Below, one piece after another: positions 298 to 7,437 of a DNA stretch of 64,000 nt. Origin of the DNA: Fimbriiglobus ruber (lineage in GTDB: Bacteria; Planctomycetota; Planctomycetia; Gemmatales; Gemmataceae); assembly GCF_002197845.1 (NCBI RefSeq), contig NZ_NIDE01000004.1:682001-746000 (forward strand), in the 5' to 3' direction. The notes under the pieces were generated by a model. It worked only from the letters and a program-made list of their open reading frames with translations. It had not been told where the DNA came from and did not search any database. Within the stretch, counting starts at the first letter, position 1, and each line of letters begins with the position of its first letter. The translations under genes were made by a program, and so were the position numbers.

Positions 298-1857
298 ATG
301 TCCGATCCGGCGCCGACGACCTTTCTGCCCGATGGCGCACCGGCCCCACCGAGCGCGACGGGCTCCGAGGCCCATTTGTGGTCGAAGACCCCGTCGTTCT
401 CGCAGCCGGCTCCGTCCGGCTCGGACCGGTTGCCGGCGGAGTGGGGCGAGTACGGCGGCGTCGAGCACGTCGCGGACGGCGGGATGGGCGCCGTCTACAA
501 GGCCCGGAACCGCCGCCTGAACCGCGTCGAGGCGGTCAAGGTGGTGCTGTCCGGCCGATTCGCCGGGACCCGTCAGATCGAGCGGTTCCGGTTCGAGGCC
601 GAGGCCGCCGCCGCCCTCGACCACCCGAACATCGTGCCCGTGTACGGGGTCGGTGAGGTCGGCGGTATTCCTTATTTCGCGATGAAGTGGATCGAGGGCG
701 GGGACCTCGCCCGGTATGCCGCCGGCATCCGCCACGACCCGCGGGCGATCGCCGGGGTAATGGCCAAGGTCGCCCGCGCGGTCAACCACGCGCACCGGAT
801 GGGGATTCTCCACCGCGACCTCAAGCCGTCCAACGTCCTCGTGGACGCCGACGGCGACCCGCACGTCACCGACTTCGGGCTCGCCAAACGTGCCGACGCC
901 AGTGAGGGAATGACGGTCACCGGGGCCGTCGTCGGGACGCCGAGTTACATGGCCCCCGAGCAGGCACGGGGCGACCGGGGGCTCACCACGGCGGTCGACG
1001 TGTACGGGATCGGGGCGATCCTGTACGAGGTCCTGACCGGCCGCCCGCCGTTCACCGGGCGGGCGCTAACGGAAGTCATCAAGCGGGTCGCCGGCGATCC
1101 CCCGATCCGGCCGTCGGACCTCGACCCGGCGGTGAACAGCGACCTCGAAGCCGTCTGCCTCAAGTGCCTGGAGAAAGACCCGCGGGACCGGTACATTTCC
1201 GCCCGGGTGGTGGCCGAAGACCTCGAACGCTGCGCGCGGGGCGAGCCGGTGTCGGTCCGCCCGCCTGGGCTGTGGGAGTGGGCCCAGCGGGAGGTGTCGA
1301 AGACGCCGCCGCACTTCCCCGGGTACGTGTGGGAGGTGAAGATCTGGTTCGGCGCCATCATCGCGGCGAGCCAGACGGGCGTCTTCGCGCTAGCCCGGGC
1401 CGGGTGGGACGTGGCGTGGGTGTGGGGTTCGTTCGTCGGGGCGTGGGCCACCGCCGCGGTCGCGCTCTGGTGGTACATGGCCGCCCGGTTCACCCGCCTC
1501 CCGGCCACCGAGCAGCACTCGGTGATGATCGCGGTCGGGCACATCCTCGCCCAGATCGCGCTGACCGCGGCCGTCCTCCCGTGGACCGGCCCGGCCGATC
1601 TCGCTCTGGCGATCTACCCGGCCATGACGGCGATCAGCGGCTTCTCGTTATTCGTGGTGGGTACGACCCACTGGGGCCGGTTCTACTGGTTCGGGCTGGC
1701 TATCACCGCGCTGGCCCCGGTCTGCGCCGCATGGCCGGCGGCCGGCCCGCTGTTGTACGGGTGGGCGCTGGCGGCGTGCATGTGGTACTGGGCGTACGCG
1801 GTGAAAGTGACGTTCGGCACGGTCCCGCCCGAGGCGGCGGACGGGCTGAACGGGTAA
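298..1857 (+). CDS. Membrane-anchored serine/threonine protein kinase
   Basis: Hanks-type Ser/Thr kinase of 519 residues that should phosphorylate cytoplasmic proteins from the inner face of the membrane. The kinase domain spans about residues 53-315. It has a glycine-rich loop DGGMGAVYKA, the ATP-binding Lys81 in AVKVV, the catalytic loop HRDLKPSN (Asp174), DFG at 192-194 and the activation segment GTPSYMAPE, so all catalytic residues are present. After about residue 345 come roughly six hydrophobic segments with many Trp and Tyr residues, ending near residue 503. No extracellular sensor domain such as PASTA is visible; the membrane part itself may be the sensor. The lipoprotein gene at 1939 follows 81 bp downstream on the same strand and may be co-transcribed. 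The start at 298 has only a weak ribosome site. Confidence 0.93.
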   Translation: MSDPAPTTFLPDGAPAPPSATGSEAHLWSKTPSFSQPAPSGSDRLPAEWGEYGGVEHVADGGMGAVYKARNRRLNRVEAVKVVLSGRFAGTRQIERFRFEAEAAAALDHPNIVPVYGVGEVGGIPYFAMKWIEGGDLARYAAGIRHDPRAIAGVMAKVARAVNHAHRMGILHRDLKPSNVLVDADGDPHVTDFGLAKRADASEGMTVTGAVVGTPSYMAPEQARGDRGLTTAVDVYGIGAILYEVLTGRPPFTGRALTEVIKRVAGDPPIRPSDLDPAVNSDLEAVCLKCLEKDPRDRYISARVVAEDLERCARGEPVSVRPPGLWEWAQREVSKTPPHFPGYVWEVKIWFGAIIAASQTGVFALARAGWDVAWVWGSFVGAWATAAVALWWYMAARFTRLPATEQHSVMIAVGHILAQIALTAAVLPWTGPADLALAIYPAMTAISGFSLFVVGTTHWGRFYWFGLAITALAPVCAAWPAAGPLLYGWALAACMWYWAYAVKVTFGTVPPEAADGLNG

Positions 1858-1938: not shown

Positions 1939-4900
1939 ATGGCCCGAGCCGTCTGGTACCCGACTCTCGTGGCGGGTGTCGCGTTGGTCACGGTCGCCGT
2001 GGCGGGTGGTTGCATTGTCACGCGGACCACGAACCAGCCCGCCTGCACGCCACCCCCCCGCTCCGCCCCGGTTGCGGCGGCCCCGCCCACCACTGCGGCC
2101 GCGTCGCCATATGGACTGCCGCCGACTCCGCCAAGCACGCCGGATGAAACTCCGGACGGCGCCTTGCCCCCTGCGAGCACGGCGACGCGGACCCCACCGG
2201 TCGGACCGAAATCAGGCTCCGAGTCGTCGTTCCTGGGCATGACGGACGTGATCGACCTCACGCGCGACGGCACCAGTGCGGACGCCATCATCGAGCGGAT
2301 TCGCGAGACGAATTCCACGTTCAAGCTGTCCCGCCGCGACGTCGAAGCCCTCCGCGAGGCCAAGGTCGCGGGCTCCGTCATTCAGGAAATGGTCGGCGAA
2401 GGCAAACCCGCACCCGCCGGACCATCGACCGGGGAACCGCCCCTGCCCCGCGCGTCGGCGGAACCGACCCCGCCTCCCGCGCCCGGAAAGCGGACGCTAC
2501 GGCAGCGGATCGCCGGGTTGTTCACGCGGTCGAAGTCCGAGAGCAAGCCGACCCCGGCGAACGGGCCGACCCCGGCACCCGCGACTCAAGCAGCCACGCC
2601 GCCTTCCTCTTCTTATGTGCCCGGCGGTCTGCCAGCAAACCCTCAGTATGGGGCGACTCCGCCCATAGGACTTCCAACCAATCCGCTCTCTTCCGGGCCT
2701 CCACAGGGATACCTGTCACCCGTTCCTTCGTATGTGCCCCAGGGCGCGGTCCCGATCTCCCCGCCCGATGACGGGCCCACTCCCGCACCGACTCCCAAAC
2801 CGAACCGGCGTGTGCCGAGCGGAGTCGCCCCCGCGCCGTTACAAGCGTACCCGTCGGCCGCTCCCACGACTCTGCCTCCGACGGCCCCGACCACTACACC
2901 AGACGACGAACCCACTCCCGCACCGATTACCAAACCGTCGCGGCGCACCCCAAACGGGGCCACCCCTGTACCGGCGCAACCGTACCCGTCTGCCTCTCCG
3001 GAGTACGCTCCTAGAAACATTTCTCCGTCGGCTCCGGCTACCTCATACGACGATGAGCCTGCTCCCGCTCCGGCTTCCAAACCGTCGCGGCGTGTGCCGA
3101 GTGGAGTCGCCCCCGCGGCGCAGCCGCCCCTGTGGGCCGCTCCCGCAACGCTGCCCCCGGCAGCGGCGGCTCCGACCGCCACACCCGACGACGAACCCAC
3201 TCCCGCACCGGCGCCAGTCGCTCCGGCCGTCAAGCCGTCGCGGCGCGCTCCGAACGGGGTTGTACCGCCGACCGAGACGGCAGTCGCGCGGGCTGCCAAA
3301 CCTTCTCGGACCGCCCCAAGCCTGAACACCGAGGCGGCCAATCCCCTGCCGCGCAAGCCGGAAGTGAGTGCCGCGGCGGATTCTCTTTACGTCGTCGAAG
3401 CGCCGGACATTCTGCTGATCAAAGCGCGACACCTGGTTCCGCTCCCCTCATGCACCGTGCAACCCCAGGACGTGTTGCACCTGTCCGTCGCGGACGCCAC
3501 GAAGGAGGGCGCGATCGACGGGCTGTTCACGGTCGACGCGGACGGCACGCTCGACCTCGGGGAGAACTTCGGCGGCCCGGCCAAGGTGGCGAACTTGAAG
3601 TTGAAGGATGTCGAAAAGCTTTTGGCCGACCGCCTGGCAGACACGTTCGAGAACCCGACGGTCACGGTGGGGCTCTCCCAGTCGCGGGGCGCCCAGGAAA
3701 TCCCCGGGCAGCACATCGTCCGCCCAGACGGGACGATTTCTCTCGGGTCGTTCGGTAACGTAAAAGTGACTGGCATGACGCCGCCGAAGATCAAGGCCGC
3801 GATCGAGAAGCAACTGGGCCGGTCCCTGGACAAGCCCGAGATCGAAGTCGAAGTGTCCGCTTGCAACAGCAAATATTATTACGTCGTCACCGATATCTCT
3901 GGGAACGGCGGGCAGATCGTCCGCGTTCCCTCGTCCGGTGGCGAAGCAGTGACGGACGTGGTCTCGTCGCTCGGCGGGGCGAAAGCCGTGGTCGCGAAAC
4001 GGATGTGGGTTGCCCGCCAAAGCGGGACCGAGCGCCAAATTCTCCCGGTGGACTGGACGGCGATCACCCGCGGGCAGACGGGTACGAACTACCAACTGCT
4101 GCCCGGCGACCGCCTGTTCATCGTGGGGAAGCCGGCGGCCGAATCGGCCCGCCCCGCCCGGCCGATCACGACCCCACGCGAGACAGCACCCGCGCCGCGG
4201 CGGTCGGGTGGCGAACCGGACCGCGTCGGCCGGCTCATCATCGAAGGAAACACGATTACCGGGCAGCGGGTGATCTTGAACGAAATCGCACTGTACCCCG
4301 GGCAAATCCTCGACTACCTCAAGCTCAAGCAGGCCGAGTCCGCCCTCTCGCGACTCGGCATTTTCGATCGTGATAACCCACCAATGGTCGAAGTCCTGTC
4401 GGCGGATTCCGACGGTGCGTACAAAGACATTCGGGTACGGGTGAAGGAAGCCCGGACCGGAAAGCTGGAGCTGTCCTCGGGCCTGAGTACGGGCACCGGG
4501 CTGTTCGGCCTGATCAGTATCTCCGAGCAAAACTTTGACATCTTTCGATTGCCAGCCAGCTTGGCTGACTTCCTCTCTGGGCACTCCTTCCGGGGCGCAC
4601 GTCAAATCGCCGGAATTGAAATAACAATCGGCACCCGTGCTCAGACCTGCGCGGTCACGCTGCACGAACCCCGGCTGTTCGACGGCCGGTACGGACTAAC
4701 ATTCCGCGCCCACCTTTTCCGTCACTCGGGCGACAAAAATGATGGGGCCGCCGGGTGGGAGGTGGACGCGGAACTACAGCGGAATAAGGTCGCACTCGTG
4801 AACGTGGCGTACGGCTCGCCCGACGGGCTGAACGTCTCGTTTCCGCGTCCCCTCGTCAACACCGCGAGGCAGTTGTACACGGCTATCGATGCCAGGAAGG

Positions 4901-5121
4901 TTTGGGAACGGATGCGGTCCATGGCCGGGAAGTCTTCCACAATGTTTGGCGGCGGCATGACCCTGCCGAGCGCGAAGTACCTCGAACACCTCCCGCAATA
5001 CTTCGCGCCCGATCCCGCGTCCCGGTTGCGACAAATACTCGACACCGCTTCGGAAACCGCCCCCGCCCCACGGCGGGTCAGCGGCTCGGAGCCCGCAGCC
5101 ACTTCGACCAACCTGGACTGA
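1939..5121 (+). CDS. Lipoprotein with polysaccharide-export, POTRA and partial Omp85 domains
   Basis: Protein of 1060 residues with a clear AAGGAG ribosome site before the ATG. It starts with a hydrophobic signal ending in a lipobox-like VAGGC (Cys25), so it is probably an outer-membrane lipoprotein. Residues about 170-480 are Pro/Ala-rich with repeated DDEPTPAP...KPSRR units. Residues about 485-640 resemble a Wza-type Poly_export region followed by an SLBB-like segment (IRPDG-type motifs: VRPDGTISLGSFG). At about 758-825 there is a POTRA-like segment (VGRLIIEGNTITGQ). At about 835-940 follows the beginning of an Omp85/surface-antigen barrel like planctomycete BamA (SEQNFDIFRLP, HEPRLFDGRYGL). 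The rest of the barrel is missing and the tail is not barrel-like. Family calls rest on recognised motifs. The function, perhaps surface polysaccharide or protein export, is inferred. Confidence 0.85.
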   Translation: MARAVWYPTLVAGVALVTVAVAGGCIVTRTTNQPACTPPPRSAPVAAAPPTTAAASPYGLPPTPPSTPDETPDGALPPASTATRTPPVGPKSGSESSFLGMTDVIDLTRDGTSADAIIERIRETNSTFKLSRRDVEALREAKVAGSVIQEMVGEGKPAPAGPSTGEPPLPRASAEPTPPPAPGKRTLRQRIAGLFTRSKSESKPTPANGPTPAPATQAATPPSSSYVPGGLPANPQYGATPPIGLPTNPLSSGPPQGYLSPVPSYVPQGAVPISPPDDGPTPAPTPKPNRRVPSGVAPAPLQAYPSAAPTTLPPTAPTTTPDDEPTPAPITKPSRRTPNGATPVPAQPYPSASPEYAPRNISPSAPATSYDDEPAPAPASKPSRRVPSGVAPAAQPPLWAAPATLPPAAAAPTATPDDEPTPAPAPVAPAVKPSRRAPNGVVPPTETAVARAAKPSRTAPSLNTEAANPLPRKPEVSAAADSLYVVEAPDILLIKARHLVPLPSCTVQPQDVLHLSVADATKEGAIDGLFTVDADGTLDLGENFGGPAKVANLKLKDVEKLLADRLADTFENPTVTVGLSQSRGAQEIPGQHIVRPDGTISLGSFGNVKVTGMTPPKIKAAIEKQLGRSLDKPEIEVEVSACNSKYYYVVTDISGNGGQIVRVPSSGGEAVTDVVSSLGGAKAVVAKRMWVARQSGTERQILPVDWTAITRGQTGTNYQLLPGDRLFIVGKPAAESARPARPITTPRETAPAPRRSGGEPDRVGRLIIEGNTITGQRVILNEIALYPGQILDYLKLKQAESALSRLGIFDRDNPPMVEVLSADSDGAYKDIRVRVKEARTGKLELSSGLSTGTGLFGLISISEQNFDIFRLPASLADFLSGHSFRGARQIAGIEITIGTRAQTCAVTLHEPRLFDGRYGLTFRAHLFRHSGDKNDGAAGWEVDAELQRNKVALVNVAYGSPDGLNVSFPRPLVNTARQLYTAIDARKVWERMRSMAGKSSTMFGGGMTLPSAKYLEHLPQYFAPDPASRLRQILDTASETAPAPRRVSGSEPAATSTNLD

Positions 5122-5165: not shown

Positions 5166-5259
5166 TTTGTGCAACTTTGGAGTGCGGCGCTTGACCGCCG
5201 CTTTGGTTTTTAAAATCTTAAAAGCGGCGGTCAAGCGCCGCACTCCAAATTTGCGCAAA
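5166..5259. repeat. Inverted-repeat element, copy 1
   Basis: Two 39-bp arms (5166-5204 and 5221-5259) are inverted copies with two mismatches; the inner 29 bp (5176-5204 and 5221-5249) are perfect. The loop is a short AT-rich stretch. The right arm is nearly identical to that of a second element at 54111-54201, so this is a dispersed palindromic repeat (REP- or MITE-like). It lies between two plus-strand genes and could also act as a transcription terminator or mRNA-stabilising hairpin. Confidence 0.9.
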
Positions 5260-5400: not shown

Positions 5401-7437
5401 ATGCCCGACGCCCGGGTACTCGCGCTGCTCCGCACGACCCGCGCGCTGACGACCCCACCGACCGACGGGGTGTCCGACGCCGACCTACTCGCCCGGTTCC
5501 TCGACCGGGGCGACGCGGCCGCGTTCGAGGCACTCGTCCGGCGGCACGGGCCGATGGTCCGCGCCGTCTGCCGGGCCGCGCTCCCGAACCCGGCCGACGC
5601 CGACGACGCGTTTCAGGCGACGTTCCTCATACTCGTCCGTCGGGCGGCCGTCATCAGAGACCGCGGTGCCATCGGCGGATGGCTATACCGGGTCGCGTAC
5701 CGGGCCGCGGGGAAACTCCGCCGGACCAGCCGCGCCACCGGGCCGCTCCCCGCCGACCTGCCCGCTCCCGAACCCGCGGGGGAGCCGTTCGACGTCCGCC
5801 GCGCGGTGGAAGAAGAGGTCGGCCGGCTGCCGGAGAAATACCGGCTCCCGGTCCAGCTCTGCTACGTCGCCGGGCAGACGACCGCGGAGGCGGCAAGGCA
5901 CCTCGGGTGGGCACGGGGGACGGTACTCACCCGGCTGGCGTGGGCGCGGAAGCGATTGCGGAAGCAGTTGAGCGGCCGCGGAATTGCTCCGGCGGTCGGG
6001 GCGGTCGCTGCGCTGATCGGGCGGCAAGCGGCCGGCGGGATCGGGCCGGAATTGGTGTCGAGTACCGTTCGCGCGGCGGTCGTTCTGGCCGCGCGCGGTG
6101 GTCTCGCGGGCCTTGTGACGAATCAAACCATTACCACGACCGAAGGAGTCCTCCGGACTATGGCACTGAACAATCTGAAATGGGTAGCCGGAGTGCTGCT
6201 CGTGGCCGTCGCTTTGACCGGCATCGGCGTGAACCACTGGGCCGCGACGACCGTCTCGGCCGCCGGCCCGCCCGACAAGAAACGAGGGACGACTCCGGCC
6301 GCACCCACGGACGATCCACTCGTTGTCAGCGACCCTCTGCCACCACCGACAGCCAGGGTCGAACCGCCGCCGGCCGAAAAGAGCAAGACCCCGCCCCTCT
6401 CGGTCGGTAAACCGACCGGCACGTGGACCCGCGAGGTCGACACCGAGACGAAAATCTCTCTGACGATTGACGAGGACCGGATTTACGCCACGGCCGAGTT
6501 CACGGAAGGCGGCGAAAAGGTATCCGTCACCATCGACGGGGATTACAGCATTAACAAGGAAAGCGTGCTGTTCGGCGTCATCACCGGGATCGACTGCACA
6601 CTCGGCACCCCAGGAATGTCGCGGATGTACGTCGGCCAGCCGTTCGCGTTCGGATTCCGGACCGACGGCGATCTGCTCTGGGTGAAAGACGTTCGGTTCG
6701 CCACCCTCGGCAAGCCCGACGGGGCGTTCCAACTGGATGCGGTTCTCGACGCCATCGCCGGGCGATACGTCGTGGACAAAACGAATCCGCACCCACAGCG
6801 GCCCAAGCCGGCCAAGTCCGCAACCCCACGGGCGCGCCGCTTACAAGGGCCGCTACCGTCGGCGAACATTCCGACTCCGACTCCGGACACGGCCCCTTCA
6901 GTCATCGGGGTGCCGGCGAACATTCCGACTCCGATTCCGGACGCGGCCCTTCCAACCCTCACGCCGCCGCCACCGCCGCAAGTGGGCGTTGGTCAGGTCC
7001 CGCCCCAGACTAGTCGCCAAGGAACTGTACGAACATCGGAAGGCCATCCGCCTGCGACGGGCGTTGGTCCGGTCCCGCTCCCGACTTCCGGCCTGCCGCC
7101 GGCTCCGGTGCCGTTGACTCCGGAAACGAGTCCAGTACCGAGTTCGGACCTGAAAAAGGAGCCGCAATCGAGCGTTCCGGCAATACCACCACAAGAGAAG
7201 AATCCGGATTCGCACGCGACGCGGAATGTACCAGCGTTACCGACACCGATTTCGGACAAGAAAGAGGACTCGCCGTCGAGCGTACCGCCAATACTGGGAC
7301 AGGCTCCGAAAACGGAACGGCCGTCGAGCATTCCGACACTCCCGCCATCGAACGCGAACCCGGAACTGGGTTCGCCACGGAGTGCCCCACCAATACCCGG
7401 CTCAAAATCGGACTCCCCGCCCGGCGAACCCAGGTAG
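5401..7437 (+). CDS. ECF sigma factor with membrane segment and long C-terminal domain
   Basis: Sigma-70 family ECF-type factor of 678 residues, far longer than the usual ~190. Region 2 lies at about residues 27-95 (DADDAFQATFLILVRR) and region 4 at about 135-185 (LPEKYRLPVQLCYVAG, then a helix-turn-helix with TTAEAARHLGWARGTV). A transmembrane segment follows at about 262-283 (WVAGVLLVAVALTGIGV). An outside domain of about 120 residues comes next, beginning GTWTREVD and resembling the TIGR03067-type domains seen on planctomycete sigma factors. The Pro/Ser-rich tail contains repeated NIPTP units. The start has an excellent AGGAGG ribosome site. No separate anti-sigma gene is adjacent, so the fused membrane part may control the factor; this is inference. 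Confidence 0.9.
   Translation: MPDARVLALLRTTRALTTPPTDGVSDADLLARFLDRGDAAAFEALVRRHGPMVRAVCRAALPNPADADDAFQATFLILVRRAAVIRDRGAIGGWLYRVAYRAAGKLRRTSRATGPLPADLPAPEPAGEPFDVRRAVEEEVGRLPEKYRLPVQLCYVAGQTTAEAARHLGWARGTVLTRLAWARKRLRKQLSGRGIAPAVGAVAALIGRQAAGGIGPELVSSTVRAAVVLAARGGLAGLVTNQTITTTEGVLRTMALNNLKWVAGVLLVAVALTGIGVNHWAATTVSAAGPPDKKRGTTPAAPTDDPLVVSDPLPPPTARVEPPPAEKSKTPPLSVGKPTGTWTREVDTETKISLTIDEDRIYATAEFTEGGEKVSVTIDGDYSINKESVLFGVITGIDCTLGTPGMSRMYVGQPFAFGFRTDGDLLWVKDVRFATLGKPDGAFQLDAVLDAIAGRYVVDKTNPHPQRPKPAKSATPRARRLQGPLPSANIPTPTPDTAPSVIGVPANIPTPIPDAALPTLTPPPPPQVGVGQVPPQTSRQGTVRTSEGHPPATGVGPVPLPTSGLPPAPVPLTPETSPVPSSDLKKEPQSSVPAIPPQEKNPDSHATRNVPALPTPISDKKEDSPSSVPPILGQAPKTERPSSIPTLPPSNANPELGSPRSAPPIPGSKSDSPPGEPR

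What the first reader, a model, noticed from the sequence alone, without database searches (positions are those of the whole stretch)
1939..5121. Lipoprotein that joins a Wza-like export domain, a POTRA and a cut-short Omp85 barrel
Seen: lipobox at residue 25, long Pro-rich repeats, Poly_export/SLBB-like region, POTRA-like segment and the opening strands of a planctomycete-BamA-like barrel (SEQNFDIFRLP, HEPRLFDGRYGL) in one chain, with the remaining barrel strands absent. Known: Wza-type export and Omp85 proteins normally belong to separate machines. Inferred: a hybrid outer-envelope export or docking component, or an old fusion. A membrane Ser/Thr kinase gene precedes it, which may regulate it.
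Basis: partly seen in the sequence, partly recalled or inferred. Interest (0 to 1): 0.7.

Follow-up and report, generated by a model that had tools for sequence, protein, structure and literature searches.

The report
Mosaic envelope lipoprotein of dispersed parts
This gene joins, in one open frame, an outer-membrane anchor, a polysaccharide-export ring domain without its membrane-crossing helix, one POTRA domain and a few barrel strands, largely derived from genes that still exist elsewhere in the same genome; it shows how a bacterium built a new envelope protein from spare parts, but it probably cannot form an export pore by itself.

Summary
In detail: window 1939-5121 encodes a 1060-aa lipoprotein with a Poly_export (OPX/Wza-type) region, one POTRA and the opening Omp85 strands; the rest of the barrel is absent. 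In 94 other Gemmataceae genomes and 16 of related families, OPX and BamA matches lie in separate genes. The window's genome keeps both intact donors. The OPX part is sister to its own donor (98/94); the POTRA/strand part falls in the own-lineage BamA clade (92/89); the C-terminus matches a small conserved lipoprotein. So this is a lineage-specific mosaic. The C-terminal helix with which OPX proteins are thought to cross the outer membrane is replaced by a linker plus POTRA. The POTRA keeps 20 of 21 family-conserved positions, the strands 23 of 40. Branch omega is 0.12-0.24: the pieces were under selection, perhaps partly before the fusion. A separate POTRA1-2 fragment with the same divergence suggests a second BamA copy that was broken up. 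Most likely this is a lipid-anchored periplasmic scaffold that makes no pore. Expression and partners are untested.

The parts
1939..5121 (+). whole gene, 1060 aa mosaic lipoprotein
   Evidence: codon-position GC pattern
1939..2013 (+). signal peptide with lipobox, Cys25, then I26 (outer-membrane type by the +2 rule: inference)
   Evidence: pattern match
2233..2403 (+). small domain (about residues 99-155) shared with three other proteins of the genome (37-41% identity)
2404..3363 (+). Pro-rich spacer with imperfect repeats (copies start at 2744, 2879, 3026, 3164)
   Evidence: sequence
3388..4146 (+). Wza/OPX region (Poly_export, two stretches, plus SLBB-like part), about 59% identical to the standalone OPX at G000:C1:1537506-1538411
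4147..4203 (+). Pro/Arg linker standing where 17 of 19 family members examined have a conserved C-terminal helix-like tail
4204..4458 (+). single POTRA, equivalent to the last POTRA of the genome's BamA; 20 of 21 family-conserved positions kept
4459..4722 (+). about five opening Omp85 strands; only 23 of 40 family-conserved positions kept
4723..4950 (+). stretch of uncertain origin, possibly one or two degenerate strands, then low-confidence helix
4951..5088 (+). C-terminal segment shared with a 113-aa lipoprotein (50% identity; 68 bp at 85% DNA identity, 4950-5017)
298..1857 (+). membrane Ser/Thr kinase gene ending 81 bp upstream; possible co-transcription, no functional link shown
5166..5259 (+). 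palindromic repeat element downstream of the gene; dispersed family in the genome, not part of the protein

Best explanation
A lineage-specific mosaic gene. Shown: its OPX part, POTRA/strand part and C-terminal segment are related to separate genes that persist in the same genome, and the fused order was found nowhere else among the genomes searched. Shown: the OPX part ends where its family continues into a conserved C-terminal tail, and the barrel part stops after about five of sixteen strands. Inferred: the protein is held in the outer membrane by its lipid; the Pro-rich spacer lets the OPX region reach into the periplasm, where it may still form a ring or join one with the intact OPX; the POTRA is a protein-docking module, perhaps towards an outer-membrane barrel or its clients. 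It would work like an OPX that cannot cross the membrane itself and depends on another barrel. The strand segment is probably a relic. Inferred for its origin: duplicates of the OPX and BamA genes were joined in frame through Pro-rich and linker sequence, and a second BamA copy was broken up, leaving a POTRA1-2 fragment elsewhere.
For: Both intact donors are present in the genome, the OPX next to a Wzc-like protein and an epimerase. The OPX part is sister to its own donor at 98/94, inside the same-genus G001 sequence. The POTRA/strand part sits in the own/G022/G001/G002 group at 92/89 together with G018 and G009. The order is absent in 94 other family genomes and 16 others; a genome-contig scan returned no relative. 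A conserved C-terminal tail is present in 17 of 19 OPX rows and missing here. POTRA positions kept 20/21 against strands 23/40, p 0.0025. Branch omega: OPX part 0.24 (omega 1 rejected at p 0.034); POTRA/strands 0.12 (p about 1e-6). The POTRA1-2 fragment at C14:669030-669539 has dN 0.32 and dS 1.13 against BamA, nearly equal to 0.34 and 1.11 for this gene, and is sister to the own BamA at 93/89. Fold models match BamA/TamA and, at E below 0.001, only Wza/OPX.
Against: No expression, localisation or interaction data exist. The branch omega may partly record evolution before the fusion. dS is near saturation, so dates are loose. The exact place of the POTRA/strand part is weak (89/65) on a long branch. 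The OPX part has also lost conserved positions (56 of 72 kept), which fits decay. Ring formation and docking are not tested at all.
Confidence: 0.55

Rival explanations
1. A chimera that is already decaying and has no selected function; the open frame persists because long open frames are common in GC-rich DNA.
For: Long terminal branches (0.84 against 0.11, and 1.5 against 0.21); 17 of 40 conserved strand positions lost; omega of the OPX part is higher than the family's (p 0.005); spurious long frames occur in such genomes.
Against: Omega is well below 1 on the branch; the POTRA keeps 20 of 21 conserved positions; the codon-position GC pattern is gene-like in the OPX and POTRA parts; signal peptide and ribosome site look intact.
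Confidence: 0.27
2. A self-contained composite channel: an OPX-type ring in which each subunit contributes its few BamA-derived strands to one shared barrel, as TolC subunits do with their own strands.
For: OPX proteins form rings (established for Wza, PMC9603273); AlphaFold predicts several strands with moderate confidence after the POTRA; strand omega is below 1.
Against: Strand positions are eroding; no other genome has it; Foldseek matches are to BamA and TamA segments, not to composite barrels.
Confidence: 0.06
3. A sensor arm of the neighbouring kinase: the lipoprotein reports envelope state to the membrane Ser/Thr kinase encoded just upstream.
For: Same strand and 81 bp apart; the kinase has a Pkinase domain and a hydrophobic C-terminal part.
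Against: The C-terminal part of the kinase has only scattered weak relatives, so no conserved linkage can be shown; adjacency alone is weak.
Confidence: 0.08
4. An assembly or sequencing artefact joining unrelated genes.
For: The combination is unique among the genomes searched.
Against: The parts are 50-60% identical to their donors, not copies of them; the gene lies inside a 1.43-Mb contig.
Confidence: 0.02

Closest known systems
OPX proteins of class 1 (E. coli Wza) and the standalone planctomycete OPX of this genome
   Same: Poly_export and Wza-like fold, lipoprotein, homologous over residues 484-736
   Different: C-terminal tail missing and replaced by linker plus POTRA; the gene is not next to polysaccharide genes
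OPX proteins of class 3 (M. xanthus WzaX/S/B) with separate barrel partners (PMC9603273; composite OPX/barrel translocon, PMC9601211)
   Same: Poly_export/SLBB-like part without a membrane-crossing helix
   Different: Class 3 proteins are short (median 256 aa, PMC9603273) and pair with a separate barrel; this one carries a POTRA and part of a BamA barrel in the same chain
BamA / Omp85
   Same: Last POTRA and first strands, about 56% identical to the genome's BamA
   Different: One POTRA instead of five, about 5 of 16 strands, no C-terminal strands
Single-POTRA BamA copy in another Gemmataceae genome (L112)
   Same: Partial BamA duplicate that begins at the same POTRA (TPDRVGR...)
   Different: Keeps the whole barrel and is not fused to an OPX

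Membership tests
OPX class 1 (Wza) | Poly_export domain | tested here: met
   E 9.4e-20, two stretches
OPX class 1 (Wza) | SLBB domain | tested here: inconclusive
   no Pfam hit; sequence and fold match to Wza extends through that region
OPX class 1 (Wza) | C-terminal outer-membrane helix (Wza_C type) | tested here: not met
   conserved helix-like tail in 17 of 19 relatives, absent here; that this tail is the Wza_C equivalent is inferred from position and pattern
OPX class 3 | Poly_export/SLBB only, no Wza_C or GfcC | tested here: not met
   lacks the tail as class 3 does, but carries additional POTRA and strand domains
OPX class 3 | works with a separate barrel | not testable with these tools
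   partner unknown; the two flanking genes are a kinase and a sigma factor
BamA / Omp85 | POTRA repeat(s) before the barrel | tested here: met
   one POTRA, E 2.5e-6
BamA / Omp85 | complete barrel with C-terminal strands | tested here: not met
   homology ends at residue 928-929; nothing further downstream
outer-membrane lipoprotein | lipobox with non-Asp +2 residue | tested here: met
   pattern match ending at C25, I26 next; lipidation itself not tested

The most novel reading that the evidence does not exclude
A functional OPX ring that has exchanged its own membrane helix for a BamA-derived POTRA and strands, either docking the ring on an outer-membrane barrel machine or forming a composite barrel, and thus a link between polysaccharide export and outer-membrane protein assembly in one chain.
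Probability: 0.12. Interest if true: 0.8.

Novelty: new variant of a known kind. Interest (0 to 1): 0.42.

Why it matters
It is a bacterial gene whose donors can still be read in the same genome: an OPX, a BamA and a small lipoprotein. That makes the origin of a new multi-domain envelope protein traceable. If the protein works, it is a natural test of what an OPX can do without its membrane helix and of POTRA as a movable docking module. Two other proteins of this genome carry a lone POTRA on unrelated N-termini.

Tried and rejected
Searches with the full-length protein over many genomes failed, so the Pro-rich part was left out. A joint alignment of OPX and BamA rows misaligned the two halves and was replaced by separate ones. 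A more recent origin of the C-terminal segment was tested through synonymous identity: 15/19 against 137/244, p 0.057, not significant. Continuation of the barrel after residue 929 was tested: profile score -1.2; the alignment to the own BamA was matched or beaten by 386 of 500 shuffles. An empty site in relatives could not be found because the kinase has no clear syntenic relative. Apparent long frames in G105 and G057 were checked and are ordinary OPX and BamA genes read through upstream. No sigma-70-type promoter was found, which says little in this phylum. Literature searches turned up no report of an OPX-POTRA chain among the titles and passages looked at.

Full report
Observation. The barrel stops: homology to BamA ends at residue 928-929 and no remainder lies downstream in any frame up to window 8000. 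A weak, non-significant resemblance at about residues 940-962 may be a degenerate strand.

Donors in the same genome. The genome holds a standalone OPX (C1:1537506-1538411, 55% identical over residues 440-737 and 59% over its core), a full BamA of 828 aa with five POTRAs and an Omp85 domain (C1:725129-727612, about 56% over residues 756-927), and a small 113-aa lipoprotein (C1:1098789-1098926) sharing the C-terminal segment. The OPX lies beside a Wzc-like protein and an epimerase, as expected of a polysaccharide locus. A small domain near the N-terminus recurs in three other proteins of the genome.

Recurrence. In 40 relatives from 37 genera in all, wherever OPX, BamA-like and small-lipoprotein matches were found they lay in separate genes; only the window's genome joins them. 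The same holds for OPX and BamA in 94 other Gemmataceae genomes; two suspiciously long frames were inspected and are ordinary. A scan of genome contigs gave no relative. Limits: the list was cut at its weak end, five genomes had no match at the threshold used, and the two same-genus genomes are only 86-87% complete.

Phylogeny and selection. The OPX part is sister to the own OPX at 98/94, inside the same-genus G001 sequence, on a branch of 0.84 against 0.11. The POTRA/strand part falls in a group of own-lineage and near sequences at 92/89, but its exact place is unsure (89/65) on a branch of 1.5. Synonymous distances are near saturation, and selection before the fusion cannot be separated from selection after it.

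What is kept and lost. Of positions conserved in the BamA family, the POTRA keeps 20 of 21 and the strands 23 of 40, while the own BamA keeps 21 of 21 and 34 of 40. The OPX part keeps 56 of 72. Seventeen of 19 OPX rows examined continue into a conserved tail (pattern aRvlaPiErlfGftLLG..T) right after the DRxyV motif; here that tail is missing and a Pro/Arg linker leads into the POTRA. By analogy with Wza this tail is the outer-membrane helix; that is an inference from position and pattern, not a Pfam match.

Structure. The OPX part models at mean pLDDT 81 and all ten Foldseek matches with E below 0.001 are Wza/OPX. The POTRA models with pLDDT mostly above 90, the strands at 74-86 and the C-terminus below 50; the listed Foldseek matches are BamA and TamA. 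TM-scores are modest, and no multimer could be modelled.

A second, broken BamA. A 231-aa frame at C14:669030-669539 holds POTRA1-2 only, 61% identical to the own BamA and sister to it at 93/89. Its dN and dS against BamA (0.32, 1.13) nearly equal those of the POTRA/strand part here (0.34, 1.11). The simplest reading is one duplicated BamA whose pieces were separated, but two independent duplications of similar age would look alike.

Mechanism. Best reading: a lipid-anchored periplasmic protein in which an OPX region without membrane helix is joined to a POTRA docking domain. It works like the OPX proteins that need a separate barrel (PMC9603273, PMC9601211), but it is not a member of OPX class 1 or class 3 as defined there, and it is not a BamA. 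Decay without function is the main rival.

Noticed in passing
G000:C14:669030-669539 (L084, L094): A 231-aa protein with only POTRA1-2 of BamA, same divergence from BamA as the segment in the window gene; possibly another piece of one broken BamA copy.
   Followed up: partly
G000:C5:520828-520989 (L011, L090) and G000:C14:1173281-1173487 (L009, L087): Two further proteins carry a lone POTRA at the C-terminus of unrelated N-termini, one of them with a probable transmembrane segment.
   Followed up: partly
window 5166-5259: A palindromic element with 39-nt arms; its core pattern has 60 forward and 64 reverse matches in the genome with up to 2 mismatches, mostly in inverted pairs. MITE-like or REP-like.
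   Followed up: partly
L112 (G062:C1:4103588-4105712): Tandem BamA genes, the second with one POTRA and a full barrel, beginning at the same PDRVGR point.
   Followed up: no
L007, L073-L081: Small lipoprotein family with the motif GGMTLPSxxYLxHxPQYFxPDP, conserved across Gemmataceae, function unknown.
   Followed up: no
window 5401-7437: Sigma-70 family (ECF-like) gene with a long Pro-rich C-terminal extension directly downstream.
   Followed up: no
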